Assembly: GCA_964036195.1 (NCBI GenBank)
Contig: OZ038455.1
Span: forward strand, 16,261,855-16,325,854
Source: Sphaerolaimus hirsutus
Taxonomy: Eukaryota; Nematoda; Chromadorea; Monhysterida; Sphaerolaimidae
DNA: 64,000 nucleotides
Direction: 5' to 3'
Shown: piece by piece, positions 14,545 through 62,232 of the stretch
How the letters are laid out: the number at the start of each line of letters is the position of its first letter
Position numbering within the stretch: the stretch's first letter is position 1
Made by a program: the position numbers and the translations under genes
The notes under the pieces: generated by a model
What the model saw: the letters and a program-made list of their open reading frames with translations, nothing else
The model's database searches: none
What the model was told of the DNA's origin: nothing

Positions 14545-17500
14545 ATGGAAATGAAGACATTGCTGGTATCGCTGCTGTTCCAAATTGTGAATACGGCATC
14601 AGGTTTGTAAAAAAATGTGCATCAAAGTATGATCGCGCCCAAAAAGTGTCATAAATTACACAAATATGACTACCTAATTGAAATTGAGATTTTGGAAATT
14701 GTTTGATTGAATGTCACAAGTTGATGTTGATCCTTTGACCGTTTGTTAGAAAATTCTTTGACTGCTTTTGAAGATCGCTGGAATTGTTGTTAAGTATTTA
14801 TTCAATAATGGGCAGTCCCCATTTTCGAGCATTCTTCCCAGAAAATGGTTTTACCGTCCATCTCAAAAGTCCGATTTTGTGACATTTTCGACAACTGAAT
14901 CTGTCATCACTTACACAGCAGGCAGCTGGGACAGAAGGAATTCATGGAATCCACAGACTAGTGGCCAACCGCAGCCAAAAATAAAAGCGCCACCAATGCT
15001 CATAGTGGCACAGAATATCCCAGGCTACAGAGAAAGCCAATACACAGACCCCTACTATGACACTTTGGATTATGGCTACCAACCCAGATCAAACATACCC
15101 CCATCTCAGCCAGAAAAATCTAGAAACACTCTTGCGAATCGGGGAAACATTAATGTGGCAGCCAGAGCAGTGCCCATACCGAAGCAACTTCATAGGAACC
15201 GGTACAACAATTATCAGCAGCGCTATCAACCACAATTGTCATTAAGTGACAATGATCCCAGGTGCCAATCCCAGACCCTGCAAGGTGGAAAGTAAAGTGT
15301 CTAATGTCATGTAAATTGTCATGCAAAGTGTCAATGGTCATGACAAATGTAAAGTAAAGTGTCAATTGACATGAAAAGTTCAGTAATAAAATCTTTTTTG
15401 TTGTGATTGACATTTTACATGAAATTTGACACTTTACTTTACACTTTACAGGGTCTGGGACTGCCCCCAGGAACCAGTACAACAATTATCAGCAGCAGTA
15501 TCAACCACAATTGTCAATAAGTGACAATGACCCCAGATGGCTGAACAGAGGCTACTTTAACCATCTTGCCCACACAACCATTAGACCACCAACCACAAGC
15601 ACGAGCTCAACCACTCCAAGCACAACTTCAACAAGCACGACACCGCCTTCGACCAGCGTGCTTACATTGGACTTGAAATCACTTGACCCGACAACGATAA
15701 AGAAACTGAGTGAGGCGGGTCTGTTGAAATTGAAGTCGCAACAAAGTGGTGTAGCTGCGGACTTCTTTGGTGAACCAGGTTTGTGATATTGCTGAGTGGC
15801 TACATGTTGACAGAAATTAGTTGATGATTATCTGAAATTGTGGCAAATGCAGATTGGCAGGTAATTTTCTTAAGGGCTTTGTCTGTGTTGTCTATGAACT
15901 CAAAAATACTATCAGCACGCACACTCACCACTCAGACTTCTACTTATGCAGACCATAATGGCCCTGCGCACACTAGTTTTCACACGAAATTTGGAAAACT
16001 CATAAAAGAGCTTTAAACGTGTTTGAGTTTTCCACAATGAGTCATTTTTAATCTCCGTCAACTGTAGTTGACAGCCACCTCATTGTAGAAAACTCAAATG
16101 CGTTCTAAGCTGATTTGTGAGTTTTCAAAATTTCGTGTGAAAACTAGTGTGCGCAGGCACAATCATACATAAAATAATTTTTGAGACACGTTTCAGGTGT
16201 GAAGCAACTTCAAAATAAGTTGCAAATCACAAATACACAAACCTAAAAAACCCTTCTCACCGTATCCTCCATCAATCTCAGGCGGCGCCGAATGGCTCAA
16301 CATATTCAGAGAGTTGGCCCCCCTTCTACCAGCAGTGCTCACAGGGGCCTCAATGTTTGGCCCGTCTGCCGGGGGTGCCGGTGCCATACCCCCACCAGAC
16401 AGCATCGTGGTGCCCAGCGATGCTGACATTCTGGCACAGCTGGGCGGGGCGGGGCCCGATTTGGGGGCCTTTGCTAGTCATTTGAATTTACAGGAAGCTG
16501 CCGCTGTGGGCGCCATTATTGGTTGGTGATGAAAAACGGTTTTCAGTATTTCTTCTAATAGAAGAGCACCGTTCTAGTTATTACGTCAACTTTTTTACCT
16601 GCCATTCTATTGGAGGTGCTTTTCTATTGCAGGCTGCCGTTCTACATGTATTTTTTCGCCTCAATTTTCCACACATTTTTCATTTGAACATGGTGTTTCT
16701 GAACAATATTGTTTTCGTGGTGTAAAAACTTGCCAAAACTTGCCGTGCTATTGGAGGTGCTGTTTTATTGGAGGTAGGCTGTTCTATTAGAAGAAATACG
16801 GTACCTACCTATATGCATAACAATATGTTGAACTCTTCACACTGGCAAAAACGTAATATCGTTTTTCCCCTCCAGCCAACAACGAGCCATCAGTCAATCC
16901 AATCGTGGGAAATAACCAGGCTACATTCATTTCGGGAATGGGACCACCAATCAATGGGCAACCAGCACCAATCAATGGCTTGCCAGGATCTATCCAGCCA
17001 AACAGACAGGCGCCAATGCAACAACCATTGTCGCCACAGCAAAGTGGGGCTCAGAACGGCCACACGTCACCGGCAGATGTCCACACTGGTTGCTCACAGG
17101 TGAATATTGTAGTGATGGGATCGTATTTACATACATCATGTACCCAAATTCGAGCACTTTTGAACTATCGTATTCCCTTGACATACAAGCCCGAAATACC
17201 CCCCGCCCCTCGAAATATCCCCAGTTCTGAACGAGCTTGTGAAGAAATAAACAAAGCCAAAGTACGGAGAGTTCAAAACTTCTGGCGACATAACACCCCC
17301 CTCGTAGTACCCCCTCCCTCGTTTAACCCCCCACCAAACTTGCACTCTGAAAAATAAACCCCTGCGGGTATTTCGAGGCAATTCGCTAGTCGAATGGAAT
17401 CAACGAGTCCACACAAGTCCACAACCAAAAGACAGATCCACACACGCAGGTCGACTGCAACATGGACCAGGGCACCCTCTGCGACTACATGTCGCCCCAA

Positions 17501-19370
17501 GGCACCACCTCCTGGCGGGTCGCCTCCAGACACGCGCCCAACGCTCTTACAGGCATTTTGTCCGACGCTAGTGGCTCGGGCATGTTCGCGTACTCGGGTG
17601 GCCATCCGGGAACTGGGTCGGGAACTAGATTTGTGATCAGTTCTAAGGAGTTTAAGCATACTAAGGGGGCTGTGCTGAGGTTCAGGTATTATCAGGTCTG
17701 TTTGGATTTTTGGTTTGGTTGTTATTCCTTTTTATGTTCGTTAATTAAATGATTGAAAGATGGAATAAAAATGTGATTCGCATCCCAGTTTGGAAAATAT
17801 AGTGAAATATGATTTTAGCAAAATCTTTCAAACCAAAAATATAATTTAATCTCTCTGCGAACAAAATATATATTTTTTTAATTCAAAAAATTCCTCAAAT
17901 GAAATTTGATTAAATGAATGAATGAATAATAGTAATTATGATTAAATTTCACCGGAAAAATCTGTAATAATGTTTAAAAAATTTCCTAATATATTTTGAA
18001 CGCTATACACAACACTCCCCTTCACAGGCGGGCATCTTGGGTCGTCTGCGAGTGTGCCTAGACAATTTCCAGGCACAACATTGTCCATTCGAGACAACCG
18101 GTTCAGACGTGAGACCGCAAAATTCGAGACAGTGGCGCGCGGTCACTTTGCCCCTGCCCAGGGATGGCAAGGAACATAGCGTAAGTGGCGACGGCCATTA
18201 GGCACAGTTGACATTGGCTGTCCACTCTTTTCATTTCTGTTACATTTTAGTTGACGGGCCGCTCAAAGATGTTCAAACTCGTATGCGCCATCACGTCAAC
18301 TAGAGTTTGTAGCGCTATTGTCCACCTACACGCAAAGCATTGTATAAAAAAACTACAAGCAAAAAACTACACTCGCGGCAAACCCGTAACGTTGATGTTT
18401 CAAAAAGACATATATTCAGTCAAACTGCAATATTGGTTAGCTTTGCGCAGAGGCGATAACCCACACGATGAGGCTCAGCCGAGTGGGGTTTATTGCTGGT
18501 TGAAAACTTTTCCCAATTGCCCGCCATGACGACCTGAAACACGGTCGGCACTGGCAATTTTTGGGGCCCCACACAGGGGGCTAATAATAATAACTTCGTC
18601 CGCTGCACAAGTTGGCGACATCAAGAAATTACCCGGATTTCTTGGGCGCACCGAAAAAAGCCTAGTTTGATGAGGAAATGTTTTTTTACATAGGAAGCGC
18701 AAGGGTTTTTCACCGTTAGCTTTTTATCAGAGGCAGAATCCAGGAGTAGATAGCAAAGTGGAAGGGAAAATAGTAATGGGAAAAATAACAACAAACTTTG
18801 AAATAAAAAGCTAACGCCAAAGAAAAAAGCTCCATGGCGATTCTGTCGCTTGGCGCTAATCGTATGGCGCCAGTGGCATGAGAAAAGCGCCATGGCGCTT
18901 TTTACATCACTACAGTTGACACTTGTCACTTCAAACTTGACTTCTTCAAACTTGACAACCTACTTTTCTTGTCACTTTTCCACGTACAGATCTGACACCA
19001 GGGGGCGGCCCCGGAGATGTATTTTTTTAAAGTCAAGTGTCAAATTTCATGCAAAATGTAAATAAATAATAAAGGAAAAAATATTCTGAAGTTTTGACAT
19101 TTTGTATGAAAGTAGGCAAAGTTGCATGAAATTTTACATGACACTTTACTTTGCACATGACTTTACATTTGACACCTTACTTTGCACTTTGCAGGGCTTG
19201 GGACTGCCCCCAGCTCACATATAGGCACAAGTGGTCGTTTTGTCAAAGGAAACATTTCCGCCCCACAGGTGCACTTCGTGGCCGACGGTCTGAAAGAGAA
19301 CTACATGATCGGTTTGGACGACATACATTTGGCTATGGTCGACCAACCCGGCCCAGTCGACTGCGTGTGA
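14545..19370 (+). CDS. Secreted MAM-domain protein
   Basis: Eight exons in consistent phase: 14545-14602, 14919-15261, 15471-15778, 16282-16521, 16876-17099, 17450-17695, 18028-18180 and 19269-19370 (TGA); about 557 residues. Exon 1 encodes a signal peptide (MKTLLVSLLFQIVNTAS). Then comes a Gln/Tyr/Pro-rich region with a 22-residue unit present twice (each containing YNNYQQ and SDNDPR), then a Thr/Ser/Pro stretch likely to be O-glycosylated, then a Gly/Pro-rich linker. The C-terminus is one MAM domain: it opens CNMDQGTLCDY and contains RLRVCLDNF, CPFETTG, QWRAVTLPLP and ends MIGLDDIHLAMV. MAM domains mediate extracellular adhesion. Exon 2 has a tandem CAGCAG acceptor, so one residue may vary. 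The intron at 15262 is a transposable element, and four other introns hold elements. AATAAA near 19463 may be the poly(A) signal. Confidence 0.82.
15262..15470 (+). mobile_element. Introner-like element forming an intron
   Basis: The intron starts GTGCCAATCCCAGACCCTG, and its 3' end reads CAGGGTCTGGGACTGCCCCC then CAG, so its ends are inverted repeats of each other (inner TAAAGTGTC against GACACTTTA). CAG stands on both sides (15259-15261, 15468-15470), giving exon-CAG|GT...CAG|exon. Splicing joins phase 2 to phase 2 and leaves the frame open. About 66 bp of exon is duplicated on the two sides of the element. Confidence 0.75.
15961..16158. mobile_element. CTAGTTTTCAC element in MAM intron 3
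   Basis: Ends GCCCTGCGCACACTAGTTTT and AAAACTAGTGTGCGCAGGC are inverted repeats; the inner words are CACACGAAATTTGGAAAACTC and its complement. It fills much of the 503-bp intron between 15778 and 16282. Confidence 0.75.
16545..16803. mobile_element. TACCGTATTT element in MAM intron 4
   Basis: TTCTATTAGAAG type. The left end is slightly degraded (CAGTATTTCTTCTAATAGAA) and the right end is CTATTAGAAGAAATACGGTA. It occupies most of the 354-bp intron between 16521 and 16876. Confidence 0.7.
17166..17392. mobile_element. Degraded TACCGTATTT element in MAM intron 5
   Basis: C-rich type with worn ends (ATCGTATTCCCTTGACATA and GGTATTTCGAGGCAATTCG). The core words AGAGTTCAAAACTTCTGGCG match the core at about 1315. 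It occupies most of the intron between 17099 and 17450. Confidence 0.6.
18520..19214. mobile_element. Element remnants in last MAM intron
   Basis: The intron 18181-19268 holds several remnants. One is a GGCGCC/AGCGCCATGGCG palindrome ending TTTTTACATCACTAC near 18911. Another is an introner-like right end at 19150-19214 (TTTGCACTTTGCAGGGCTTG, then GGACTGCCCCCAG). Part of the first, from about 18526, recurs at 29908-30060 (CTGAAACACGGTCGGCACTG). Confidence 0.5.
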
Positions 19371-20781: not shown

Positions 20782-20838
20782 GTTGGGTTAGTTGAGATCA
20801 TGGGATCAGTGCCGAGTGGCTGGCCGCCGCAGCGCCAC

Positions 20839-21345
<507 letters not shown>

Positions 21346-21631
21346 CAGAATTGGGCGCGGGGAATCGATTGCATTGTTGGGCGCGGGCCAGGATTTGAAT
21401 TGCGCTTGGGTCAACTGCATGTACACACAACGAAAGACATGCGTGGTGCGGACCCCCCGGTGAGACATTACCTATTCTGCAAAATGACCTTCATTCCGAT
21501 TTTACAGTGGCACCTGTCGTTCTGTTGAGTGTAACAAAAACACTCATGGTATACGCATGTGCATGCTTGGAATTCTTGGCGCCATTTCATGTTTGAGTTC
21601 CCTCCACTTAAATATGACATATCGTGTTATA

Positions 21632-21868
21632 GGCCCTACACACACTAGTTTTCACCGTGACTTGTGTGAAAACTGAAATGGCGACATCGCGACATTCAGC
21701 CTACTCTTATCGTATGCTATATGTGTTTTAGTTTTCAAATTTTGAAACTTTAACCTTCATTAATTTAAATTTAATTAAAATTAATTCATTCAACCGTGTT
21801 CATTAATTTGCATTTGAAAAAATTTCAGTTTTCACACGAAGTCACGGTGAAAACTAGTGTGTGTAGGC
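21632..21868. mobile_element. CTAGTTTTCAC element
   Basis: Near copy of the element at 7098: GGCCCTACACACACTAGTTT on the left and AAACTAGTGTGTGTAGGC on the right, with the same interior words (GCCTACTCTT, CATTCAGC). Confidence 0.75.
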
Positions 21869-23005
21869 AGGCACATTATACAAAATTTCATACAAAGTGA
21901 AAATTACATACATGTTGCGTGATAAAATGAAGCAATTGCAGTTTGTTGAACGAGTTTCTTTTAACCACATCACTATAATGTGTTGTGTATAGTGTCATGA
22001 TAAGCACTGAGACTTTGGTGCCAACTGCTGGAAGCAACACTTTTCTAACCCCAAGCACCAAGTGCGAATGCTGCCAGCCAGAGCTGCCTGCTGAATTCGC
22101 AATCGACACTTAGCTCATTTCTCCATCTGCTCTGCATTCGATCGACTTCTCGGCACCATGGGCAAACGTTCGGGCAAGCGTTCGCACAGCGAGCGTGGCA
22201 CCGAAAGGCAGCGCCGTTCCCACTGAAGGGTTTTGAGGTACATTTGTTTGCACCTGGTATAACAATAGAATGTGCTACGGGTAAAATTATGTGCAATACC
22301 GGTGCTTTTTGTCTTTTATTTTTTGTTTTCGACATTAGGATACACTCGACACGTTTTGGATACATTTTGGATGCTACAAAAAAAGCTGTTTAACGCTAAA
22401 CCTAGGGCGAGGTGCCTATCAAAAGAAAACTAAGTCAAAAAACACGTGTACTTCTTTCTTGTGATAGGGCGATACGAGCTCGCCAACAGCTTCAAAAAAA
22501 CTATATAAAAATGGCATCAAGCACCAACCAGGTGCTTTTGTCCCAGGCATCACTGAAAAAACCACCCATACACTAATAGCACCACAAGGATCAAGTGTCA
22601 ATCAGATGAAAAACTTTACAATGCCATGGTGATAAAATATCGGTAAGATGTTCAGCAAATATGTCATCCTTATGTTTGTTGATACCAGAATGTCATTTTC
22701 ACACGGTCTTTCAGTTTCATATGTGGGTATTTTACATGTTAACGGTAAAGGTAAAGCTTTATGACAATACATGAAGCGTTATAGCAACAAAATGTATGAG
22801 CAGTGTAAACATACTGAATTTTCTCGAATAGCCCCCTCGTTTAACTCCCCTCAAAATTCCCACTCTGAAAAAATAAACCCCGGGGGGGTATTCCAAGGAA
22901 ATACGGTCTGTGTATTTATTTATTGAAGAAAAAACGCGGAATTCTCGGTGAATTGTGTTGTTTAAAAGCAGATTTCGAGGCGACGGAGCCGCATGGCCCC
23001 ACGCA
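21869..23005. other. No gene seen
   Basis: Short frames only. A degraded C-rich TACCGTATTT element lies at about 22815-22907 (CTCGAATAGCCCC to GGAAATACGGT). Around 22140-22230 there are GC-richer words but no exon I can support. Confidence 0.35.
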
Positions 23006-24384
23006 TAGGGCTCCAACTCGACTCGACTCGTGACTCGAGGGTAAAATTGGGTACTGACTCGACTCGGCCGACTTTACCGGAAAAATATGCCCTGACTCGA
23101 GACTCGAGGTTTCTGCCTGACTCGACTCGAAATATTGACAAATTTCGAGTCGGGGTTACGATTAAATAATGTCAAAAAAGTTCAATTTTGATATGAATTT
23201 TTTTGACATATTTTTCAAAAATTTGTGCACAAATGCGCATTTCCACTCCAGATGCATGATATATCATTGATTGGCTTGGCATATGTATTGAATAAAGTTA
23301 AAACTCGAGTTTCTTTATGCCAACCATGCCATGTTGTGGTGCCTATGATGTAGCCAGTGTAATGGCATGAATCCGTTTGTCTAGGCAAAATTTGTGTGGT
23401 AAGAGAGCCCCCACCATTCATTCACCATTACAGAGGGTAAACAAATACTCCTTTTCAAAAATACCTGATAAATCCCAGGTTGTAGCCAGGGACGTAGCCA
23501 GGATTTTTTGAGCGGGGGGGGGGCGGATTGTATACAGAGCCTGGCGAATGGGGGGGGCGGCGCCCCCCCCCCCTAAAATTTGACCCCAGTGGTAAATAAA
23601 GGAATGGCGCCTTGGCACCAGCACCATTTGTAGGAATCGAGATTTGTCGGAGTCGGGATCGGGATCGGGATTGGTATTTTGAGATTTCGGGATCAGGATC
23701 GGGATTGGCCGGGATTGGGGTCACGGGATCGGGATCGGGATTGGCTTTTTTTCGGGATCGGGGTCTAGGGATAGAGATTTTCGTCACTGTTCTGGCATTC
23801 ACAGTTGTTCATAAAGGTCTCAAAACACTGTTGGATGCCAGAAAAGTGACATAAAATGGACGCTGGGGGTTTGCATTCACATTTTTGCACACAAAAATGT
23901 CATTTTTTCACTTTTTATAATTTCCACCATTTTTTCCGGGATCGGGATCCCGGACTTGGGAGATTCTCGGGATCGGGATTTGAAAGTTTTCGGGATCGGG
24001 ATTGGTATTTTTGGATTTCGGGATCGGGATTGGGGTTTCGGGATCGGGATTGGGACTGCTAAATCCCGGAATTTCACGGGATCCGGGATCGGGATCCCGT
24101 TTGAACCCTACCTGTAAGGTGATATTTTCACTTTATTTTGATAGTAAAATCAACCGTTGGAATTTAGACTTCGTTAAGTGTGTGTGAAAACATTGGTAGA
24201 GAAACCAGTATCTAAAATATCTGCAAGGGTCATACCAAAAAGTAACGCATCCGACTCGACTCTCGAAATTTTTGCCTGACTCGACTTTTCACTGACTTGC
24301 AGAACTTGACTCGCCAACTCGACCGGAAAAATTTTGGGATGCGACCCGAACTCGAGTCTGAAAAAATCGAGTTTCGAGCCTTAC
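23006..24384. mobile_element. GACTCGA-repeat element, carrying nested elements
   Basis: The left end TAGGGCTCCAACTCGACTCG and the right end AATCGAGTTTCGAGCCTTA are imperfect inverted repeats with arrays of GACTCGA inside. The middle is occupied by a GGGACGTAGCCAGG fragment (about 23487-23600) and by a GGGATC-repeat hAT relative (about 23640-24110). No clean target duplication was found. Confidence 0.55.
23640..24110. mobile_element. hAT-type relative, GGGATC repeats
   Basis: The right terminus GGGATCCCGTTTGAACCCTA is intact; the left terminus is degraded. It shares with 41645-42181 both the GGGATCGGGATTGG arrays and a unique core (TTCTGGCATTCACAGTTGTT and following), in opposite orientation. 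Confidence 0.7.
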
Positions 24385-24426
24385 CTACACACCTAGTTTT
24401 CACCGTGACGTGACGTGGGTGAGAAC

Positions 24427-24556
24427 TAACGATGGCAAACCCCCCAGAAAAAAAGTATTTTAATTTTTCAAGTGTTTTTTTCTAAATTGACATTTCGAAT
24501 TTTCTTATTTTTTCCCAAATTACGTGCCGAAATTCGAATCTTTTTTGCCATCGTTA
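24427..24556. mobile_element. 130-bp hAT-type element
   Basis: Ends TAACGATGGCAAA and TTTGCCATCGTTA, with the perfect 8-bp duplication GTGAGAAC (24419-24426, 24557-24564). It is inserted into a CTAGTTTTCACCGTGAC element whose left part starts near 24387 and whose interior words resume at 24566. Confidence 0.88.
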
Positions 24557-25016
24557 GTGAGAACTGAAATGGCGACATTCAGCCTACTATTATTGTATGC
24601 TATGAGTGCCATATTACCTCGAATTATCCGGCACGACTCAAATCAATAAATCGAATATTGCAATGTGTTAAACACGTAATTTCCCAAACATCTGCTAAAA
24701 ACCAATCAACATGTCATGAAATGTCGCTTCATCTGTTTAGACTTTTTTTCCGGCAGCGCGCTGCAAATTAACCACGCGATCTGCCCCTTCCCCGCGACGT
24801 ATTGCGTATTTTAACACCGGCGATAACTACATTTGCGTAAATTTGTTTCACCCATCATAACGTGAACCGATCCGCATTTGCATTTTACTGTAAATACCGC
24901 ATCGTCGAAAATTTACAGACGCCCAGCAAAATTGAAGCCTGCTTTCGACAAAGTGAGGCAGCGACCGCGATAGTTTTCTAGATCACAAAAAGCACATTTT
25001 CTCTTGCACAAGTGGT

Positions 25017-25032
25017 GGCCCTGAAGAGGGCC
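25017..25032 (-). terminator. Histone H2A mRNA 3' stem-loop
   Basis: The minus strand reads GGCCCTCTTCAGGGCC followed by ACCACTTGTG, starting 47 bp after the H2A coding region. It is identical to the H3 stem-loop. Confidence 0.92.
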
Positions 25033-25078
25033 GTTGGGTTAGGTTCAGAGTCGACTCTCGTCACTCCATCCAGCCAAT

Positions 25079-25462
25079 CTACTTGGCCTTCTCCCCACCA
25101 GTCTTCTTGGGCAACAACACAGCCTGTATGTTGGGCAGGACGCCGCCCTGCGCGATGGTTACGCCGCTCAGCAGCTTGTTCAGCTCCTCGTCGTTGCGGA
25201 TGGCCAGCTGCAGGTGCCGCGGGATGATGCGCGTCTTCTTGTTGTCCCTGGCCGCGTTGCCCGCCAGCTCCAGCACCTCGGCGGCCAGGTACTCGAGCAC
25301 TGCGGCCAGGTAGACTGGGGCGCCGCTGCCCACGCGCTCGGCGTAGTTGCCCTTGCGCAGCAGCCGGTGGATGCGGCCCACGGGGAACTGCAGCCCCGCC
25401 CTGGACGAGCGCGACTTGGACTTGCCCTTGGCTTTGCCTCCTTTGCCTCCGCGACCGGACAT
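25079..25462 (-). CDS. H2A: Histone H2A
   Basis: Intronless, 127 residues. It starts [20 protein letters not shown], contains [19 protein letters not shown], the acidic-patch helix and VLLPKKT, and ends GGEKAK. The short tail lacks an SQ motif, so it is not H2A.X, and loop sequences are canonical rather than H2A.Z. The ATG at 25462 was chosen over the longer open frame because homology starts there. It is transcribed away from H2B with a shared 271-bp promoter; a TATA box lies 83 bp before the ATG. Confidence 0.98.
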
Positions 25463-25544
25463 GATTTTGGATTTGGGGGCTTGGAAAAGACGAGAAAAGA
25501 GCGCGACTACACGATTTTTGAATTTGAACATGCGGCGCGAGCAT

Positions 25545-25550
25545 TTTATA
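25545..25550 (-). promoter_or_regulatory. TATA box of H2A
   Basis: TATAAA on the minus strand (in CGTATAAAATGCTC), 83 bp upstream of the H2A ATG and inside the divergent H2A-H2B promoter. Confidence 0.75.
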
Positions 25551-25640
25551 CGCACGCGCGGCGTACTCTCCGCCCACCGGTGGGCACCGGAATGTATCGC
25601 GTGCTCAGGGCCATTGCAATGCACGCGCGCACGGCGGGGC

Positions 25641-25650
25641 AAATAAAATA
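25641..25650 (+). promoter_or_regulatory. TATA-like box of H2B
   Basis: AAATAAAATA, 84-93 bp upstream of the H2B ATG, at the same spacing as the H2A and H4 TATA boxes. Confidence 0.55.
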
Positions 25651-25733
25651 GCGCCGCGCCGCCTGCCCGGCACCCAGTCTGTCTCAGTGCATTCAAACCC
25701 CGAACACACAAACGCCACCACTCAACCCGCACC

Positions 25734-26105
25734 ATGCCGCCCAAACCCTCCGCCAAAGGCGCCAAAAAGGCGGCCAAGTCGCAGAAAGCCGCTCGCACGG
25801 GCGACAAGAAACGCCGCCACAAGCGCAAAGAATCCTTCGCCAGCTACGTGTACAAGGTGCTCAAGCAGGTGCACCCCGACACGGGAATCAGCTCCAAGGC
25901 CATGTCCATCATGAACTCGTTCGTGAACGACATATTCGAGCGGATCGCGGGCGAGGCGTCGCGCCTGGCGCAGTACAACAAGAAGCACACGATCACGAGC
26001 CGCGAGGTGCAGACCAGCGTCAGGTTGCTGCTCCCCGGCGAGCTGGCCAAGCACGCCGTCAGCGAGGGCACCAAGGCTGTCACCAAGTACACCAGCTCCA
26101 AGTAG
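25734..26105 (+). CDS. H2B: Histone H2B
   Basis: Intronless, 123 residues. It starts [15 protein letters not shown], has a basic N-terminal tail, [20 protein letters not shown] and [20 protein letters not shown], and ends KYTSSK. It pairs with H2A in the nucleosome core. Some positions are unusual compared with the arthropod and mollusc H2B I remember: [10 protein letters not shown] where most have Y-x-IYIYKVLK, and [17 protein letters not shown] where RIAAEASRLAHYNKRST is common. These differences could help place the organism. A canonical stem-loop follows. Confidence 0.98.
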
Positions 26106-26144
26106 GGCGCTGTGCGTCACTGAGATTCAATCCACTAACCCAAC

Positions 26145-26160
26145 GGCCCTCTTCAGGGCC
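26145..26160 (+). terminator. Histone H2B mRNA 3' stem-loop
   Basis: GGCCCTCTTCAGGGCC preceded by CAAC and followed by ACCACTCGTG, 40 bp after the H2B stop. Confidence 0.93.
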
Positions 26161-26607
26161 ACCACTCGTGCGAGAGAACCAGTGTGCATGTGCGACCGTT
26201 TTTCACTCGTTCTATTCTACAATATTCGTTGGTGATGCGCGTAGAACCCCCAGCGTCCGGAAATGTCATCCGCAATTTTCAAAAGGGTGTGGATGGCGGT
26301 ACACCGTTAATTTCGTGATCACTCTGCAACCATACCGAACAGCAAAAAAGCCTACCTAATTCACGTTTGAATTGGAACAGCGGTGCTGACGGCAGTTCAT
26401 GACAAATACTCTGGTCTACCAAAATACCCACACGTATTACTGGTTAGGTATCCGAGAAATTCATTGCAGGTAGAAAAATTACCTGAGAAGGTTATTGCGT
26501 GTAAAAAAACCCTGCGTAGACAAACCCACAGCTTTCCATTTACATAGGTGTGTAGAATGTTCGGAATAATGCGAAGAGCTTATAAAATTGCACGGGGGTC
26601 TGGGCTC
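26161..26607. other. No gene seen
   Basis: Flank of the H2B gene; short frames only. Confidence 0.4.
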
Positions 26608-26815
26608 ATACACGCTAGTTGACATCGCACATTCGTGTCAATGTCAACTTAATAACACAAACCAGATTTTTGAAGCTACATGTCTAACCGAGACAATGAA
26701 AATTACATGTCCTGATGTAAAATCAACTATGCTTTATCAGATACAGTTGAAATGACATAATTCACTAAAATTTAGTTGACACGAATTCAGTTGACGTCCA
26801 GCGTGTGTGGCGCCA
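26608..26815. mobile_element. GGCCC-CACAC-CTAGTT element, GTTGACA type
   Basis: Left end GGGCTCATACACGCTAGTTG followed by ACATCGCAC; right end AGTTGACGTCCAGCGTGTGTGG then CGCCATTAT. The inverted repeats are worn. AT-rich interior. Confidence 0.6.
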
Positions 26816-27464
26816 TTATCACGAGTTTAAAAATGTTGCTCAAGCAATGAAACTAATTCCACGGCGTACGTTGACGACAAGAAATACCATATTTCGAATT
26901 TAGAAATACCTGGCCTACATGGGGGGGGGTATTCAAGGATATACGGTAATAAAAAAACCCGTGCTGAAACATGTGTGTGCGTGTGTGTGTGTGTTTGTCA
27001 CTGCAACTTCCCTCAACCTCATTAAGCTCCTCAAACATCAACGTCATTGACACATTGTCAAAAAATATGCAGATTACCCATAAGAACCCGACGAAAGCAA
27101 TCAAAGATTCAGAAATTTCATCATTTTGGGAAAACAAACAAAGGGTATTACTCCGATAATCATTACAAAGATAATCTGCTCAACGATGGCGGGTGCACCC
27201 ATGCGATCATCACATTCACATGCCGTATTCAATGCATGGCAGGTGGTCGCCGGGCACGTGACCCGCAGCGCGGCACCCCATTTCCACGGTCAAACCGATC
27301 CCTCACTCACTCAGCGATCCATAGTCCTTGGGCGCCGAACAAAGAACCACTGCACAGCAGGTGGCGCCGCACCGCACGGCTCCGACTATGGCGGCTGCTG
27401 GCCAACGCGCAAACAAAACGGGAGTCACGCATCCCGCCCCTGCCGCCGCGCCAACGCGCGCGCA

Positions 27465-27859
<395 letters not shown>

Positions 27860-27902
27860 GCTGCTCAGCTGGATGCGAGGCGATGATCTCAATCAACCCA
27901 AC

Positions 27903-28900: not shown

Positions 28901-28967
28901 CTGTGAGCGACGAGCTATTTGTACAGCGGCACCAGCGATGGAAAAGCGCCGTCCGTTAGACCTGGGG

Positions 28968-29110
28968 GCAGGCAGTTCCAAGCCCTGCAAAGTAAAATGT
29001 CAATCAAAACAAAAGATTTCATTACCGAATTTGCATGACAATTGACAGTTTACTTTGCATTTGACTTTACATTTGACACTTTACTTTACCTTGCTTGGGA
29101 CTGCCACCTG
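28968..29110. mobile_element. Introner-like element
   Basis: The left end GGGGGCAGGCAGTTCCAAGC and CCTGCAAAGTAAAATGTCAA face a right end of TTTACCTTGCTTGGGACTGC then CACCTG. CTG flanks both sides, fitting a 3-bp target duplication. Not inside a recognised gene. Confidence 0.55.
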
Positions 29111-29714
29111 TAGATGAAAAACCTGTGACAAATTTTCAATTACATTACAAAAGTTGCATGCAGTAGGTATTGTTAGCTAGCTACAAGTGTAAACTTACAA
29201 TTATTGATAACAATTGTTTGCATTTTCAGTAGAAGAACTACTGGAGTGTCAAATTTCAAGCAATGTTGCAATTGTGATGACAAATGCCATGCATAGTGCA
29301 AATTGTGTATCCAATGTTTTTTTTGTATCCAAAGCTTATGATTTGTATCCAATATAAAAATTAAGATTTCATTACAATTTGCTTGACGATTGACACTTAA
29401 ATTTATATTTGTCATGACAATTGACATTTTGCATGACATTTTACATGAAATCTGACACTTTACAAAGCTAGGGACTGCCCCCAGTTCCGCCAATAAACAG
29501 GTAGAAGCTCAAGCAACAAGATACATTTTTTACAAAAATGTGGATTTTTGTACAATTTTACAAAATCACCACTTTAAAATTTTTTTTAACAAAAATTCGA
29601 ATTTTTATCAACTTTTCTTTTTCTTTTTTCTTTTCCATTTTATGTTATTCTTACATTTTCCATTTCATTTTTATTCTTTTCTGAGATTTTGCCAACACTG
29701 GCCATGACGACCAG
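29111..29714. repeat. Degraded introner-like fragments and AT-rich DNA
   Basis: Words TGACATTTTGCATGACATTT and CTAGGGACTGCCCCCAG (about 29400-29484) belong to the same family, but no left terminus is clear. The rest is poly-T-rich. Confidence 0.4.
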
Positions 29715-29909
29715 GTGGCAGTCCCAAGCCCTGTAAAGTGTAAAGTAAAGTGTCAAATGTAAAGTCAAATGCAAAGTAAACTGTCAATTGTCATGCAAAG
29801 TTCAGTAATAAAATCTTTTCTTTTTTGCTTTGATTGACACTTGACTTTGCATTTGACTTTACATTTGACACTTTATTTTACACTTTACAGGGCCTGGGAC
29901 TGCCCCCTG
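29715..29909. mobile_element. Introner-like element
   Basis: Starts GTGGCAGTCCCAAGCCCTGT after CAG and ends ACAGGGCCTGGGACTGCCCC before CTG. The inner words TAAAGTGTCAAATGTAAAG and GACTTTACATTTGACAC are inverted repeats. Not in a recognised gene, so it shows the family outside introns. Confidence 0.7.
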
Positions 29910-30774
29910 AAACACGGTCGGCACTGGCAATTTTTGGGACAGCCCCGCACAGGTGCCATAAGTTGGCCGCGTCAAGAAACAAGTTTTTGTGAGCACCCTG
30001 AAAAAAGCTAGATTTAATAAGTTATGTTTTTTTTACATGGGAAGCGCGCGGTGGGAGTTGTCAACTTCTGATCAGAATCGACGAGTAGATAGGAAAGTGG
30101 CAAAGAAACTGGTAATGGGTAGCAATCAAATTTTGACATCTCGCTCAAATTTTGACTGAAATCAAAGCTCGCCGCATATAAATTCAGTTGATTAGTAATG
30201 TAACAGACCCATGGTGCTAGCGCCACAGCAAAAAGCGCCATGGTCATTTTGGCGCTTTTTTCGTGTGGCGTTCAGTCCCGCACTTAGGAAAAGCCCTTTG
30301 GCGCTTGGCACCAAAGCCATGGCGGTTCTTACATCACTACGATTGACATTTCACCACCTCAAACTTGGCACACCTAAACCAACGTAAACGTAAACACTGG
30401 TTCGCATTTGATTCGTTATATCTGTTGCTGACACAAATGACAGCGTGTAAAAAGCTGTTTATTTTGCCATATCGATACAGAATATCGTCGATTTTTTGTT
30501 CAGAGGAATACAATATTTGGGGGTTCATATATTTACTGCAATCGCATTCCCGAAAGTAAAGATAACTGGGTGTAACAAGTATAAATACATTCATAGCTAA
30601 AGCGGTAAGCATTGGCGAACTGGTTGAAAAAAATAAATTCAATTTGAGCGAGCAGAGTAACAAATCGCCCAGCTGTGTCGATCATGGTATCTGGCATGGA
30701 GACCTAACTGGATTGAACATAACTCATTAAAAACCATGCATGATCCTAAAAATATCTTAGTTACGCAAGTCAGC
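29910..30774. other. No gene seen; GCGCCA remnants
   Basis: AGCGCCATGG/GGCGCTT words at 30220-30340, ending TTCTTACATCACTAC, are a remnant of the TAGTGATG-type family. The following 430 bp is the 3' flank of glyoxalase I (minus strand). Confidence 0.4.
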
Positions 30775-35459: not shown

Positions 35460-35628
35460 GTGGCAGTCCCAAACCCTGTAAAGTCTAAAGCAGTGCCAAA
35501 TTTAAAGTCAAATGCAAAGATCAGTAATAAAATATCATCGGTTTTGTTTTGATTGACACTTTACTTTGCATTTGACTTTACATTTGACACTTTACTTCAC
35601 ACTTTACAGGGCTTGGGACTGCCCCCAA
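35460..35628. mobile_element. Introner-like element
   Basis: Starts GTGGCAGTCCCAAACCCTGT after CAA, ends ACAGGGCTTGGGACTGCCCC, and is followed by CAA (35626-35628). So a 3-bp duplication CAA replaces the CAG seen in the two intron cases. The inner GTCAAATGC/GCATTTGAC words are inverted repeats. Confidence 0.7.
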
Positions 35629-53752: not shown

Positions 53753-53939
53753 TGCCCCGTGTAAACTACCGTTTACGTATTATTTAGATTTTAGCATGAA
53801 AAAATTGATAATTGCCAGGGATAATCAATTGTGATAGTCCATTGCCTTCCAAAATGCTGCCATAGTAAACATAGACAGGCTTCGCGTAAAATGTCAACGC
53901 TGAATTTACCTATCGAGTTCACATGTTCACCTAATGAAG

Positions 53940-54103
53940 GGCAGTCCCAAGCCCTGTCAAGTGTAAAGTGTCAAATGCTAAGTAAAGTGTCAATCAACAC
54001 AAAGAAGAAAATATTTTATTACCGAACTTTGCGTGACAATTGACAGTTTACTTTACATTTGGCACTTTACTTCACACTTTACTGGGCTAGGGACTGCCAC
54101 CTG
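53940..54103. mobile_element. Introner-like element
   Basis: GGCAGTCCCAAGCCCTGTCA and AGTGTAAAGTGTC on the left; GGCACTTTACTTCACACTTT and GGGCTAGGGACTGCCACCTG on the right. It lies 155 bp upstream of tRNA-Tyr. Confidence 0.65.
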
Positions 54104-54257: not shown

Positions 54258-54342
54258 CCTTCGGTAGCTCAGTTGGTAGAGCGGTGGACTGTAGTGGTCG
54301 GCGGACATCCATAGGTCACTGGTTCGAATCCGGTCCGAAGGA
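54258..54342 (+). tRNA. tRNA-Tyr (GTA) with 12-nt intron
   Basis: Complete cloverleaf. Acceptor stem CCTTCGG (54258-54264) pairs with CCGAAGG (54335-54341), discriminator A54342. The D arm reads GCTCAGTTGGTAGAGC, the anticodon stem GTGGA/TCCAT, and the T arm ACTGG-TTCGAAT-CCGGT. Anticodon GTA is at 54291-54293. A 12-nt intron (54295-54306, TGGTCGGCGGAC) sits after the base 3' of the anticodon, the usual place in eukaryotic tRNA-Tyr. A T-run from 54350 would end Pol III transcription. Confidence 0.95.
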
Positions 54343-57520: not shown

Positions 57521-57556
57521 GCATATATATATTGTTCAGCAAGACACCTACTGGGT

Positions 57557-59290
57557 GTCATTCGGGGAAGCCTGGGCCACTGGCCACACAAAAGAAGTAT
57601 ATCAGTAAAAAAATGGCTAAAGCCAAATAAAAAGTGGACGCTGCCTCCACAGCAAATAGACATGAAGTGTGTCTCTCAAATGGACATGAAGTGCATCCCT
57701 CAAATGGACATTAATATATATTGGATGCACAAAAGAAATGTATCATTGCTTAGAAAATGGCATACACTTCACTGATAACACACTTTACTGTGGTTACATA
57801 TCCCACCTGAATAAAGAAACTATTTGTATTACATCACAAGAGTTACATGTATTGACTGTTAAATGCACAAAAGCAATATATCATTACATCTGCATTGTGA
57901 GAAATGTCTCACATGGAACCCAGACTTTTATTTATTCAATAGTTTTCAAGGCAGATTACAGTGTTAGACGTACACATCCATGTAAAAAAAGTTTCACACC
58001 CTTCAACGATCTGAGACAAAAAGGAAAAAAATTCACTCAAGTTTATCACAGCTGCGTGAGCTTTTTGGTTTCAAACACACACATAGNNNNNNNNNNNNNN
58101 NNNNNNNNNNNNNNNNNNNNNNNNNNNNNNNNNNNNNNNNNNNNNNNNNNNNNNNNNNNNNNNNNNNNNNNNNNNNNNNNNNNNNNNNNNNNNNNNNNNN
58201 NNNNNNNNNNNNNNNNNNNNNNNNNNNNNNNNNNNNNNNNNNNNNNNNNNNNNNNNNNNNNNNNNNNNNNNNNNNNNNNNNNNNNNGGTGTCATTCGGGG
58301 AAGTCTGGGCCACTGGCCACACAAAAGAAGTATATCAGTAAAAAAATGGCTAAAGCCAAACAAAAAGTGGACGCTGCCTCCACAGCAAATAGACATGAAG
58401 TGTGTCTCTCAAATGGACATGAAGTGCGTCCCTCAAATGGACATTAATATATATTGGATGCACAAAAGAAATGTATCATTGCTTAGAAAATGGCATACAC
58501 TTCACTGATAACACACTTTACTGTGGTTACATATCCCACCTGAATAAAGAAACTATTTGGATTACATCACAAGAGTTACATGTATTGACTGTTAAATGCA
58601 CAAAAGCAATATATCATTACATCTGCATTGTGAGAAATGTCTAACATGGAACCCAGACTTTTATTTATTCAATAGTTTTCAAGGCAGATTACAGTGTTAG
58701 ACGTACACATCCATGTAAAAAAAGTTTCACACCCTTCAACTATCTGAGACAAAAAGGAAAAAAATTCACTCAAGTTTATCATAGCAGCGTGAGCTTTTTG
58801 GTTTTAAACACACACATAGCACAGCTCACGCAGCTGTGATAAACTTGAGTGAATTTTTTCCTTTTTGTCTCAGATAGTTGAAGGGTGTGAAACTTTTTTT
58901 ACATGGATGTGTATGTCTAACACTGTAATCTGCCTTGAAAACTATTGAATAAATAAAAGTCTGGGTTCAATGTGAGACATTTCTCACAATGCAGATGTAA
59001 TGATATATTGCTTTTGTGCATTTAACAGTCAATACATGTAATTCTTGTGATGTAATACAAATAGTTTCTTTATTCAGGTGGGATATGTAACCACAGTAAA
59101 GTGTGTTATCAGTGAAGTGTATGCCATTTTCTAAGCAATGATACATTTCTTTTGTGCATCCAATATATATTAATGTCCATTTGAGGGATGCACTTCATGT
59201 CCATTTGAGAGACACACTTCATGTCTATTTGCTGTGGAGGCAGCGTCCACTTTTTATTTGGCTTGAGCCATTTTTTTACTGATACTATTT
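57557..59290. repeat. Direct and inverted long repeat around assembly gap
   Basis: A roughly 530-bp unit beginning GGTGTCATTCGGGGAAG occurs at 57557-58086 and 58287-58800 in direct orientation. A third copy in opposite orientation runs from about 58824 to 59285. The second and third copies form a near-perfect palindrome with a spacer of about 30 bp. Open frames (CVSQMDMKC and so on) are the same in all copies and match nothing I know. Confidence 0.85.
58087..58286. other. Assembly gap (200 N)
   Basis: Exactly 200 undetermined bases, the usual arbitrary scaffolding gap, placed between two direct copies of the long repeat. Confidence 0.99.
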
Positions 59291-59668: not shown

Positions 59669-62232
59669 TCAAGCCAAATCAATTGCGTCCAATTTCCTCG
59701 GGTCCTCGGGATCGAACCTGGGGCCAATTCCACAAAAGGAGAAGTGAAATGAGAAGCGAAACAAAATGAAAAAAGTGAAGAAATGAATTCTGACTTAGGA
59801 AGCATTGTTTCGTAGGAAACGGGCAGACTTTCTCGCTTCCGTCAGAGGTTTCGAATTGAAAATGTGACCCTAGTCTCATTCGAATTCTATTTCACTCCGC
59901 TTTTCACTTCTCCTTTTGCGGAATTGGCACCTGGCGGCAAAATCGCTGCCCCTCCGATGGAACACGGAGTTGATGGAGCCGACTAGCAAGTTGGTGATGT
60001 GCCCGCTGGCCGAGATGTTGCGCTCGCGCGTGCTGGGCGCCGCGCCCGGAGAGCTGCAGTGCGACCGCGCGGGGTCGTCCCTGGGGCGCGGCTCTGAGTG
60101 TTGACAAAGTGCATGTATTTAGGTAATTGCTCATACATACATATTTGCATATTCAGTTTACATTTTACATGGTCATACAGATTTTATTTGTGTTCATCTT
60201 GCTTTGACGCATGTCGCTCTGGGGCCAGTCCCGCAATTGGACAAGTACTTTACTCTTGACACGTTTTTGTATCCAAATCTTATGTAACATAAGATTTGGG
60301 TACGAAAAAGTAAAGATTTGGATACAAAAAATCATGAGCTTTGGATACAAAAAACACATAAAATTTGAATATTAAAAGATAAGATTTGGATACACAATTG
60401 ACACTTTGGAACTGCCCCCTGGTGCCGGTTCCGCAAGTGGAACAGTCAGATGAGTAAAGTTAAAAGTCAAGAGCAAAGTCAAGAAGAAAGTCAAGAGTAG
60501 TAAAGTGCATGTCCACCTGATTAGTGATGGAAAAAGCGCTAGGCTTTTAGCGCCAAGCGTCAAAAGCGCCATGGCGCTTTTCAGGACCTGGGCGCCAAGC
60601 GCCTTTTTGCACTAGCGCCAGGTGCCAGCGCCATGGCGCTTTTCCATCACTACACCTGATGCCTAACAAGGTCTATGACAGGAACAAATGTTATGCGAGC
60701 TGTCTGAAATCTTCAGAAAAGTAGCACGAACCCAGTATAGTGCTGGTGTGCCAGCTATTATTGAACGGCGTTTTCCCGGCATTTTTTCCCACCATTCCGA
60801 CCATATTTCCATCCGCTTTGATTACATTAGCAAACAGATATTTGTTGGCACCCGAGAAATTTGCGCATTGGGCGCTCCTTCGTTTGCAACTAGCATTGGG
60901 TAGTTGGCCTTTCTCAGCTAAATCGGATATTTTCGCTGATGCTAGACTGTCCAAGAGGGTGAGGTCGCGTTCAACTGCAAAGATGCGAGAATAGGTGATC
61001 TACAAAATTTAGAAAATCAATCAACTGTACCACGGGTTCAACCGTATAAATATCATCAAAATTTCCGGTATTTCAGTATTAATATACCGGCGTCGGCGTT
61101 TTTCATTCAAAAATGTGTGCCATTTTCATTTTTTACGCCAAACGTGTCTGCAAAAGCATTTCAAGTTGGCGACATTTTAGCACCCTTTAGGCACAGCGCA
61201 CCAGGCGCCAACGGGGTCATGGCGCGGCGCCGTTTGGCACTGGCGCCGTTCCAACACTAGTCGCGAGCTTAGAAACATAGCATTCAGCACTGACCATTGG
61301 CGCTGCACTGTGGAAACCGGCCTCCATCCAGAACAACTCTCAATAAGTTCTCAGCAGTGGCTATTTGTTCTAGTTCGATTTGTGAACTGTCGATCAATAT
61401 TTTGAAGGGATTACATCCTGAAGTCGTCACCACATTTAGCTTGCGTGCAAAAAGTACCAAATCGCCGGCTAGTTCCACAGCATGAACAGCTGCGACGGCA
61501 GATAAAATTCGTCAAATGTCGTACCATATTTCCTTGAATAAACCCCCTTGAATTGTCTCCTCGAAATACCCCCACCTCTGATCAACCTGGGGAAATAATA
61601 AGCCCCCCTCGAATTACCCCTTATGAATTACCACGCCGAGAAAACCAGCTTACCATCGCCGCTATTGTAGCGTGTCAATATCGGCGGCTCAATACATTTA
61701 TTTGTACTTGGCACGGAGCCAAATTCTACCATTTTGTCGTCAGTCCCAGTGCACGCTGCATGGGCGCTGTGTCGCCTAAGTCCCTGTCCGGTTTGTCTCA
61801 TTAAACTGACGTGTCCACTTAGTGGGTCACTCCGCAAAATAAACGTATCACAGCGTGGACATTTTTCCGCTTGTGGAATGTCACTGGTAGATGTGGATGA
61901 GTCATCAAGCTGTGACGAGTACTGATTTTGCAGAAGAGGCTTTTAAATCGTTTTGGCACTATTGGCGGCCCTCACACTGGTTGACACAAGTGTGTCAACT
62001 AGTCTGTGTCAACTGATATTTCGGCTTCACGTGTGGTAGAGCGATCTCCAAATGCACACGCGGCAACGTTGAAAAAATACCTGCGAAACGAAAAGCAGAA
62101 ATCTGAGTTGACACATACCAGTTGACACACGTGTCTCAACTAGTGTGCGGTTCGCCATTGATCTGTCACTCACCACGGTGCACTGAGCATCTGTGTCTGA
62201 TAAGGCACTGATTTTGAAATTTGCAAACAATT
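59669..62232 (-). CDS. Unrecognised six-exon gene, 5' end missing
   Basis: Minus-strand exons in consistent phase: 62232-62174, 61921-61654, 61489-61295, 60974-60732, 60093-59931 and 59717-59669 (TGA); at least 324 residues. Features: a CPRC pair in QAEKCPRCDTFILRSDP, a helical-looking stretch with AVELAGDLVLFARKLNVVTT and SSQIELEQIATAENLLRVVL, NKYLFANVIKADGNMVGMVG, a Ser/Pro/Arg-rich linker, and a C-terminus SINSVFHRRGSDFAA, then RFDPEDPRKLDAIDLA. I do not recognise the family; it reads like a cytosolic or nuclear protein. Most junctions have good sites (GTGAGT, GTAAGC, GTCAGT donors); the fourth donor (GTTCGT) is weaker. The last intron is an introner-like element, and others hold a hAT element and a CTAGTTGACA element. 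Confidence 0.6.
59718..59930 (-). mobile_element. Introner-like element forming an intron
   Basis: On the minus strand the intron starts GTGCCAATTCCGCAAAAGG (then AGAAGTGAAA) and ends TTTCACTTCTCCTTTTGTGG (then AATTGGCCCCAG). Complementing the 3' end gives GGGGCCAATTCCACAAAAGG, so the intron is the element, TIR to TIR. CAG stands at the exon end and at the intron end. Splicing (phase 2) restores ...GCCAG|GTTCG... with an open frame to the stop. Confidence 0.75.
60222..60420. mobile_element. Introner-like element
   Basis: The left end GGGGCCAGTCCCGCAATTGG and the right end CACTTTGGAACTGCCCC, with CTG on each side. The interior repeats AAAGATTTGGATAC words. The right CTG is directly followed by the left end of another copy (GTGCCGGTTCCGCAAGTGG, from 60424). 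It lies in the fourth intron of the minus-strand gene. Confidence 0.6.
60522..60652. mobile_element. hAT-type element, 131 bp, AGCGCC repeats
   Basis: TAGTGATGGAAAAAGCGC to GCGCTTTTCCATCACTA, with the perfect 8-bp duplication CACCTGAT (60514-60521, 60653-60660). A short relative of the 9941 and 52023 elements. Confidence 0.9.
61966..62156. mobile_element. GGCCC-CACAC-CTAGTT element in intron
   Basis: GGCGGCCCTCACACTGGTTG on the left and CAACTAGTGTGCGGTTCGCC on the right, GTTGACACAAGTGTGTCAAC words inside; close to the copy at 6716. It fills most of the 252-bp first intron of the minus-strand gene. Confidence 0.75.

What the first reader, a model, noticed from the sequence alone, without database searches (positions are those of the whole stretch)
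15262..15470. A transposable element that is exactly an intron in the MAM gene
The 209-bp intron begins with the element's left terminus (GTGCCAATCCC) and ends with the inverted right terminus (GGGACTGCCCC) plus CAG. CAG is also the last triplet of the upstream exon, so the structure is CAG|GT-element-CAG|. Splicing joins phase 2 to phase 2 and keeps a long open frame on both sides. Introner elements that carry or co-opt splice sites are known from some algae and a few animals. A GT-starting, CAG-targeting one in this genome would be a live intron-making system.
Basis: partly seen in the sequence, partly recalled or inferred. Interest (0 to 1): 0.9.

Follow-up and report, generated by a model that had tools for sequence, protein, structure and literature searches.

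The report
Transposon that inserts as an intron
A short mobile DNA element, one of thousands with the same end in what looks like an animal genome, carries an intron start at one end and lands on a CAG that can serve as the intron end, so copies that land inside genes can apparently be cut out of the message without a trace; splicing itself still has to be seen in RNA.

Summary
Window 15262-15467 is a 206-bp inverted-repeat element (MITE) flanked by CAG/CAG. With the second CAG it forms a 209-bp GT...AG segment inside a MAM-domain gene. Left in place it gives a stop at codon 143; removed, the frame stays open. Relatives lie outside exons in the window, and a second MITE family (59721-59930) may be a precise intron in another gene.

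In the window's 348-Mb genome the end motif CAG|GTGSCARTYCC occurs 5,757 times, the reversed control 5 times. Of 72 fetched copies 53 had both ends. In six genes (mitochondrial Phe-tRNA ligase, METTL6, FBXL2, granulin, MULE and, weakly, RIH) the element interrupts conserved coding sequence in the sense orientation, and taking out element plus one CAG restores it. The antisense control gave none.

I read this as an introner family. CWG target duplications and GG-type ends resemble NuwaI transposons; one end has GT instead, the 5' splice site. Not shown: splicing in RNA, present activity, the transposase. For this copy an inner splice pair adding 14 codons also stays open and scores higher.

The parts
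15262..15467 (+). E1, the MITE itself (206 bp; end A GTGCCAATCCC, end B GGGGCAGTCCC read inwards)
   Evidence: sequence; inverted repeat; copies elsewhere in the genome
15259..15261 (+). left target-site copy CAG = last exon bases
15468..15470 (+). right target-site copy CAG = predicted 3' splice site
15262..15470 (+). predicted intron 2 of the MAM gene (209 nt, phase 2)
15285..15451 (+). rival inner intron (AAG|GTGGAA ... TTTACAG|GG), adds 14 codons
14551..14602 (+). MAM gene exon 1 (signal-peptide-like start, my reading)
14919..15261 (+). MAM gene exon 2
15471..15778 (+). MAM gene exon 3
16282..16521 (+). MAM gene exon 4
16876..17099 (+). MAM gene exon 5
17390..17695 (+). MAM gene exon 6 (MAM domain begins; weakest acceptor of the model, -5.86)
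18028..18180 (+). MAM gene exon 7
19269..19370 (+). MAM gene exon 8, ends TGA
15196..15261 (+). first copy of the 66-bp coding tandem duplication that abuts E1
15471..15536 (+). second copy of that duplication
29715..29906 (+). E4, relative in a U4 snRNA copy; the paralogous empty site shows a 3-bp CWG target (left CAG, right CTG, empty CTG)
35460..35625 (+). E5, relative with CAA/CAA flanks, no coding frame recognised at its flanks
28965..29107 (-). E2, relative on the minus strand, CAG/CAG
53938..54100 (-). E6, relative on the minus strand, one clean flank CAG; inner border approximate
19002..19210 (+). E7, relative inside intron 7 of the MAM gene, CAG/CAG
59721..59930 (-). F2, element of a second MITE family, CAG|GTGCCAATTCC...GGAATTGGCCC|CAG, candidate last intron (phase 2) of a minus-strand gene
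59931..60093 (-). exon before F2 in that gene (other exons 60732-60974, 61295-61489, one ending at 61654)
59669..59717 (-). short last exon after F2 (49 nt with its TGA), weak support

Best explanation
E1 is one copy of a large clan of short non-autonomous DNA transposons that insert at CWG and duplicate it. End A of the element begins GTG, where a PHIS/NuwaI-type end begins GGG, so an insertion at CAG in the sense orientation reads CAG|GT...CAG|. The spliceosome takes the element's terminal GT as 5' splice site and the downstream target-site CAG as 3' splice site. Removing element plus one CAG gives back the sequence from before insertion in any reading phase. The long inverted repeat brings the two sites together in the RNA. 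Shown: anatomy, target duplication, copy number, sense-only interruption of conserved exons in the sample, in-frame stops in the elements, seamless joining at the DNA level. Inferred: splicing in RNA, the exact sites used in E1, the GG-to-GT history, the transposase, the hairpin's role.
For: Window: inverted repeat, CAG/CAG, open frame on removal, stop on retention; 14 of 20 terminus-like sites preceded by CWG against 0.3 expected; paralogous empty site in U4. Genome: 5,757 CAG|GTGSCARTYCC against 5 for the reversed pattern; 40 places scored of 1,161 candidates, E1 itself and 39 others at 81-90% identity. Of 53 copies with both ends placed, 40 have identical 3-nt flanks, 36 of them CAG/CAG (a left CAG was a condition of the search for 38). 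Pfam at E<=0.01 on translations joined across the element: 11 families in 88 sense frames, none in 69 antisense frames. Matches across the junction: mitochondrial Phe-tRNA ligase E=6e-31, 78 residues without a gap; METTL6 5e-14, 41 without a gap; FBXL2, best stretch 7.5e-12, 78 without a gap; granulin 1e-6 in PDB without a gap, 1.2e-11 in Pfam; MULE 8.6e-6, 63 residues on 63 positions; RIH 2.3e-4 with gaps. In all 11 exonic candidates examined the retained element has an in-frame stop; in 5 of 11 the terminal CAG is the only AG in the last 45 nt.
Against: The donor is weak: 8 of 9 ordinary donors in two genes of the window have G at +5, E1 and F2 do not. With the generic matrix the exact pair is the best frame-open pair in only 2 of the 9 candidates that gave a list (L021, L052) and fourth in E1. 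In 6 of 11, E1 included, another AG lies 19 nt upstream of the CAG, and in E1, L017 and L018 an inner pair adding 42 nt also stays open. Most copies are not shown to be exonic: a domain spans the element in 3 of 52 pattern copies and, by Pfam or PDB, in 3 of 20 E1-like copies. Of 19 E1-like copies with proposed ends, 5 do not begin GT. MULE and RIH scores lie just under the Pfam cut-offs. No RNA was available. No homologue of E1's own host protein was found among the 7,994 candidates scored.
Confidence: 0.83

Rival explanations
1. E1 is spliced, but at inner sites (15285/15451), so that the outer parts of both inverted repeats stay in the mRNA as 14 extra codons, as reported for an Aureococcus introner that adds codons.
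For: Frame stays open and the generic matrix score is 6.55, the best of 20 open pairs, against -0.41 for the outer pair; TTTACAG follows a pyrimidine-rich tract and is the first AG; the same +42 option is open in L017 and L018. Precedent: PMC9860276 Fig. 2F legend.
Against: In 5 of 11 exonic candidates there is no inner AG in the last 45 nt; in L021 and L052 (the latter exonic by eye only) the inner acceptor reads TTTACACGG instead of TTTACAGGG. The +42 pair is among the five best open pairs in 3 of the 9 candidates with a list. A 14-residue insert in the middle of the conserved Phe-tRNA ligase segment would probably be harmful (inference).
Confidence: 0.2
2. E1 is not spliced; the insertion has broken the gene and the open flanks are recent remains.
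For: Weak donor; no homologue was found that would show the gene is under selection.
Against: The rest of the gene model is intact (8 exons, 1,728 nt open); E1 is 10% or more from its nearest scored relative, which suggests time enough for decay; the same arrangement occurs in conserved genes such as mitochondrial Phe-tRNA ligase and METTL6.
Confidence: 0.06
3. An older intron existed at this site and the MITE later replaced or filled it.
For: MITEs do sit inside ordinary introns here: E7 in intron 7; L061 and L011 a few bases past what I read as an ordinary donor.
Against: The E1 segment contains nothing but element plus CAG; the second copy of the 66-bp repeat runs on without an intron at the matching place; the same exact fit recurs in the other exonic copies.
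Confidence: 0.05
4. The CAG|GT match is a chance property of CAG-targeting MITEs and the exonic copies are random rare landings without any splicing.
For: Most copies are not shown to be exonic, and GT could be a neutral variant of the end.
Against: Domain hits across the element were all in sense frames; none of 69 antisense frames had any Pfam hit. Unspliced, each of the 11 candidates would stop translation.
Confidence: 0.05

Closest known systems
Introners with TSD and TIR (Gozashti et al. 2022, PMC9860276)
   Same: Short non-autonomous DNA element that makes an intron on landing in an exon; one splice site from the element, the other from the target duplication; mRNA length unchanged in most families.
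   Different: Here the target duplication is 3 bp, CWG, and the long inverted repeats differ at the second base, so only one orientation offers GT. The host looks like an animal; among animals and land plants that survey found introners in only two groups, both animals.
NuwaI group, PHIS (PIF/Harbinger-like) transposons (PMC4482050)
   Same: CWG target duplication, inverted repeats beginning GGG (here at end B), animal hosts.
   Different: End A begins GTG; no transposase has been linked to the element here. That paper searched by transposase and says MITEs may be missed.
Amoebophrya introner elements (PMC7789003)
   Same: Direct repeats of 3-5 nt at the borders and inverted repeats that fold into a hairpin (passages).
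   Different: Those were defined there among non-canonical introns with varied splice sites; here the predicted sites are GT-AG.

Membership tests
Introner | Introns in different genes share sequence up to both splice borders | tested here: met
   E1, L017, L018, L021, L087: E1-type termini at the predicted borders; the borders are predicted, not seen in RNA
Introner | Insertion lies in coding sequence that is otherwise continuous | tested here: met
   Homologue or domain matches across the element in six genes:
Introner | The element is spliced out of mRNA | not testable with these tools
   No RNA data; only frame and splice-site arguments
Introner | Intron absent in relatives (recent gain) | not testable with these tools
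   No relatives of this genome are held; no homologues of the two window proteins found
Introner | Over-represented in genes | tested here: inconclusive
   A domain spans the element in 3 of 52 pattern copies and 3 of 20 E1-like copies; no gene annotation to give the expectation
NuwaI (PHIS) MITE | 3-bp CWG target duplication | tested here: met
   14 of 20 termini in the window after CWG; identical flanks in 40 of 53 copies, 39 of these CWG (38 of the 53 were chosen by CAG at one end); empty site
NuwaI (PHIS) MITE | Inverted repeat beginning GGG | tested here: inconclusive
   End B reads GG inwards in 42 of 53; end A reads GT in 14 of 19 E1-like copies with proposed ends (the other 38 of the 53 were chosen by GT)
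NuwaI (PHIS) MITE | Mobilised by a PHIS transposase with the same ends | tested here: inconclusive
   163 DDE_Tnp_4 matches in the genome, 150 of 306 candidates scored; the two stretches read showed no such ends
MITE | Short, inverted repeats, target duplication, no coding capacity | tested here: met
   206 bp

The most novel reading that the evidence does not exclude
A whole clan of CWG-targeting PHIS-type MITEs in an animal has become an intron generator through one asymmetric base change (GG to GT) in one inverted repeat. It has seeded hundreds of seamless introns in this genome, in one orientation only, and at CTG targets it may even leave a CAG on the acceptor side and so bring its own 3' splice site (METTL6 copy L017: CTG left, CAG right).
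Probability: 0.33. Interest if true: 0.85.

Novelty: new member of a known kind. Interest (0 to 1): 0.74.

Why it matters
Where new spliceosomal introns come from is an old question, and in animals and land plants introners are nearly absent (two groups, both animals, in the 2022 survey). A genome with thousands of copies of an element whose end differs by one base from a 5' splice site makes the steps testable: GG-ended and GT-ended relatives, intergenic copies as neutral controls, and exonic copies of different divergence lie in one assembly. It also suggests that a CWG-targeting transposon is pre-adapted, because CAG is at once a good exon end and a good intron end.

Tried and rejected
Rejected: reading the element as an isolated MITE accident. 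That was my view after the window alone; the genome searches and the domain tests changed it. Rejected as exonic: L011 and L061, whose left flanks code (TPR, WH2) but where I read an ordinary donor about 10-14 nt before the element; and L014, where the SWIM hit lies in the right flank only (residues 40-55) and the left flank is another MITE. L101 looks like an S9 peptidase by eye, but neither the structure search nor Pfam found anything. L100 matches S9 peptidase only up to the junction. L064, L075, L097, L099 and L005 look like coding by eye only.

Dropped: 5 of 20 E1-like loci. For L009 no ends were proposed; for L010, L012, L013 and L015 the proposed ends begin AT, AT, TT and CT and I left them out by hand. 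Also dropped: 14 of 52 pattern loci without a clear right end. For L093 the entry used is a neighbouring element with CTG/CTG. For L008, L052 and L053 the right end was moved one base to fit the CAG. Right ends were scored with a bonus for CAG or CTG.

Unequal treatment: the ten peptides and the five were sense peptides chosen by eye; no antisense peptide was sent to the structure search. The even-handed comparison is (all 88 sense and all 69 antisense frames).

Led nowhere: protein homologues of both window genes (none at E<=0.01 among the 7,994 candidates scored; none at E<=0.1 among 1,664); Pfam for the F2 gene; ends of two DDE_Tnp_4 places; counts for CTG|GT and for GGG ends, which did not complete. 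The short last exon after F2 has weak support: 4.75 bits, reached by 3.6% of random stop-free stretches, in a model trained on the two genes of the window.

Splice scores use human-like frequencies that I recalled, not a model of this species. One search had wrong exon borders and is replaced.

Full report
What is there. The finding's segment is in the sequence as described. Its left border is GATCCCAG|GTGCCAATCCC and its right border GGGACTGCCCC|CAG|GAACC. The termini form an inverted repeat with 46 of 53 aligned positions matching (score 35.5); the other six introns of the gene score 5.0-9.5 in the same test. As RNA, 15242-15490 folds into one long hairpin (-92.7 kcal/mol, z -8.7). The best description is a 206-bp MITE, 15262-15467, with a 3-bp CAG target duplication.

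The gene. Eight exons (14551-19370) join into 1,728 nt of open frame ending in TGA, with a MAM domain at the C-terminal end (PF00629, E=7.7e-11). The element sits between exons 2 and 3 in phase 2. Left in, it stops translation at codon 143. Taken out exactly, it leaves a 22-codon tandem repeat: 15196-15261 and 15471-15536 are copies of each other (63 of 68 aligned positions). No homologue of the protein was found among the candidates scored, so nothing outside the window tests this one gene.

Relatives in the window. BLAST finds further copies, the best at 29732-29907 (78% over 176 nt). Five copies with a clean end A (E1, E2, E4, E5, E6) read CA(G/A)|GTG there. At the other four I recognised no coding frame on both sides (by eye in the ORF list; E4 lies in a U4 copy). 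So the GT most likely came with the element and did not evolve in the exon. A scan for the terminus found 20 sites (control mean 10.1, maximum 19), 14 of them after CAG or CTG (control mean 0.3, maximum 2). The intact U4 sequence at 18439-18579 gives E4's empty site ...GACGAC-CTG-AAAC..., which fits a 3-bp CWG target.

A second case in the window. F2 (59721-59930, minus strand) belongs to another MITE family but has nearly the same end, CAG|GTGCCAATTCC, and CAG/CAG flanks. It follows an exon of a minus-strand gene in phase 2, and a 49-nt stretch ending in a stop follows it in frame. That last exon has only weak coding support and the protein has no homologue found, so this is a candidate, not proof. 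F2 has no other AG in the 48 nt before its terminal one.

The genome. The window lies in a 348.5-Mb assembly. The E1 search scored 40 of 1,161 candidates: E1 itself and 39 places at 81-90% identity. CAG|GTGSCARTYCC occurs 5,757 times against 5 for the reversed pattern; of the 100 places listed, 21 lie in what looks like a tandem array on C1 below 190,307. I fetched 20 E1-like copies and 52 of the 79 listed places outside the array. Both ends were placed in 15 of 20 and 38 of 52, 53 in all. Flanking triplets are identical in 40 of 53, 36 of these CAG/CAG; for the 38 pattern copies the left CAG was a condition of the search. Of the 19 E1-like copies with proposed ends, 14 begin GT, one GG and four something else; the four were dropped.

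Test in conserved genes. For each of the 53 I removed element plus three bases and translated all frames that stay open for at least 30 nt on both sides: 88 sense and 69 antisense frames. Pfam at E<=0.01 gave 11 families, one member each, in the sense set and none in the antisense set. Matches that run across the junction: L018, mitochondrial Phe-tRNA ligase, 78 residues without a gap, E=6e-31 (the Pfam match tRNA-synt_2d, 1.6e-15, has gaps elsewhere); L017, METTL6, 41 residues without a gap, 5e-14 (no Pfam hit); L087, FBXL2, 78 residues without a gap, best stretch 7.5e-12, whole sequence 4e-31; L089, granulin, 34 residues without a gap in PDB, 1e-6, 38 residues on 38 positions in Pfam, 1.2e-11; L053, MULE, 63 residues on 63 positions, 8.6e-6, just under the family's cut-off; L021, RIH domain, 2.3e-4, with gaps and under the cut-off. 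Hits that do not run across: S9 peptidase in L100 ends at the junction; SWIM in L014 lies in the right flank; WH2 in L061 and TPR in L011 lie in the left flank, and there the element is inside an intron close to what I read as its donor. So the spanning cases are 3 of 52 pattern copies and 3 of 20 E1-like copies, all sense. By simple proportion that would mean some hundreds of such introns in the genome; this is an extrapolation.

Which splice sites. The joining above is done on DNA; it shows where the element sits, not where the spliceosome cuts. I examined 11 exonic candidates: the six above, L100, L101 and L052 (these last two exonic by eye), E1 and F2. In all 11 the retained element has an in-frame stop. 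In 5 of 11 (L021, L052, L053, L089, F2) the terminal CAG is the only AG in the last 45 nt; in L021 and L052 the inner TTTACAGGG reads TTTACACGG. In six an AG lies 19 nt upstream. Nine of the 11 gave a list of frame-open pairs (for L089 and F2 the test window ran into the downstream stop). With a generic human-like matrix the exact pair ranks first in L021 and L052, second in L053 and L101, third in L018 and L087, fourth in E1, fifth in L017 and L100. A pair that adds 42 nt is among the five best in E1, L017 and L018; for E1 it scores 6.55 against -0.41. Against easy splicing at the outer site, 8 of 9 ordinary donors in the two window genes have G at +5, while E1 and F2 have C. I put 0.2 on the inner pair for E1.

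What it works like and what it is. The mechanism is that of introners with target duplications, where one splice site comes from the element and one from the duplication (PMC9860276: Results and Discussion read; passages). The transposon kind resembles NuwaI of the PHIS group: CWG duplication, ends starting GGG, animals only (PMC4482050: one section read; passages). End B keeps GG in 42 of 53. The simplest history is GG to GT at one end, which makes CAG|GT in one orientation only; this is inference. The transposase was not found: 163 DDE_Tnp_4 matches are listed or counted in the genome, but the two stretches read showed no such ends. That DDE_Tnp_4 is the Harbinger-type domain is recalled.

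Age. E1's best scored relative is 90% identical. Within the sample a 192-bp GTGGCAGTCCC-ended group, with E4, is 96.9-97.9% identical. This suggests amplification after E1, but 'live' is not shown.

Print. A search for 'introner' with 'Harbinger' returned one paper, seen as a listing only. Other searches on introners and intron gain are (listings); PMC7789003 was seen in passages. The library lacks most subscription papers and preprints, so I make no claim that this family is unpublished.

Noticed in passing
15196-15261 and 15471-15536: E1 lies exactly at the junction of a 66-bp in-frame coding tandem duplication (63 of 68 aligned positions). Both copies end in CCCAG, so it may be a coincidence of CAG borders; no single-event explanation was found.
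   Followed up: partly
18439-18579: A full U4 snRNA match (112 bits) lies inside intron 7 of the MAM gene; a second, MITE-interrupted U4 piece lies around 29700-29950.
   Followed up: partly
L014, L017, L066, L074, L078, L083; also E4 at 29715-29906: Flanking triplets that differ are often CAG on one side and CTG on the other (6 of 13 unequal pairs among 53; E4 in addition). At L017 the Leu codon conserved in METTL6 gives CTG left and CAG right, so the acceptor AG may not come from the target. My scoring of right ends favoured CAG and CTG, so this needs an unbiased count.
   Followed up: no
G000 contig C1, 3861-190307: The first 21 listed CAG|GTGGCAGTCCC hits lie on one strand, 12 of their 20 spacings at 7.33-7.35 kb: apparently a large tandem array that contains the MITE end.
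   Followed up: no
G000, many contigs: Well over 100 DDE_Tnp_4 matches with almost the same score, most with 4 TGA in the matched span and open frames of 300 codons: perhaps a recently amplified transposase family with an intron or a common defect.
   Followed up: partly
54258-54342: tRNA called Leu by the bacterial-code tool; by my reading it looks like an intron-containing tRNA-Tyr.
   Followed up: no
20800-27900: Core histone genes (4 of 80 ORFs scanned match Pfam Histone), with a histone 3' stem-loop at 24993-25037.
   Followed up: no
58087-58286: A run of 200 N, an assembly gap beside near-identical direct and inverted repeats at 57554-59284.
   Followed up: no
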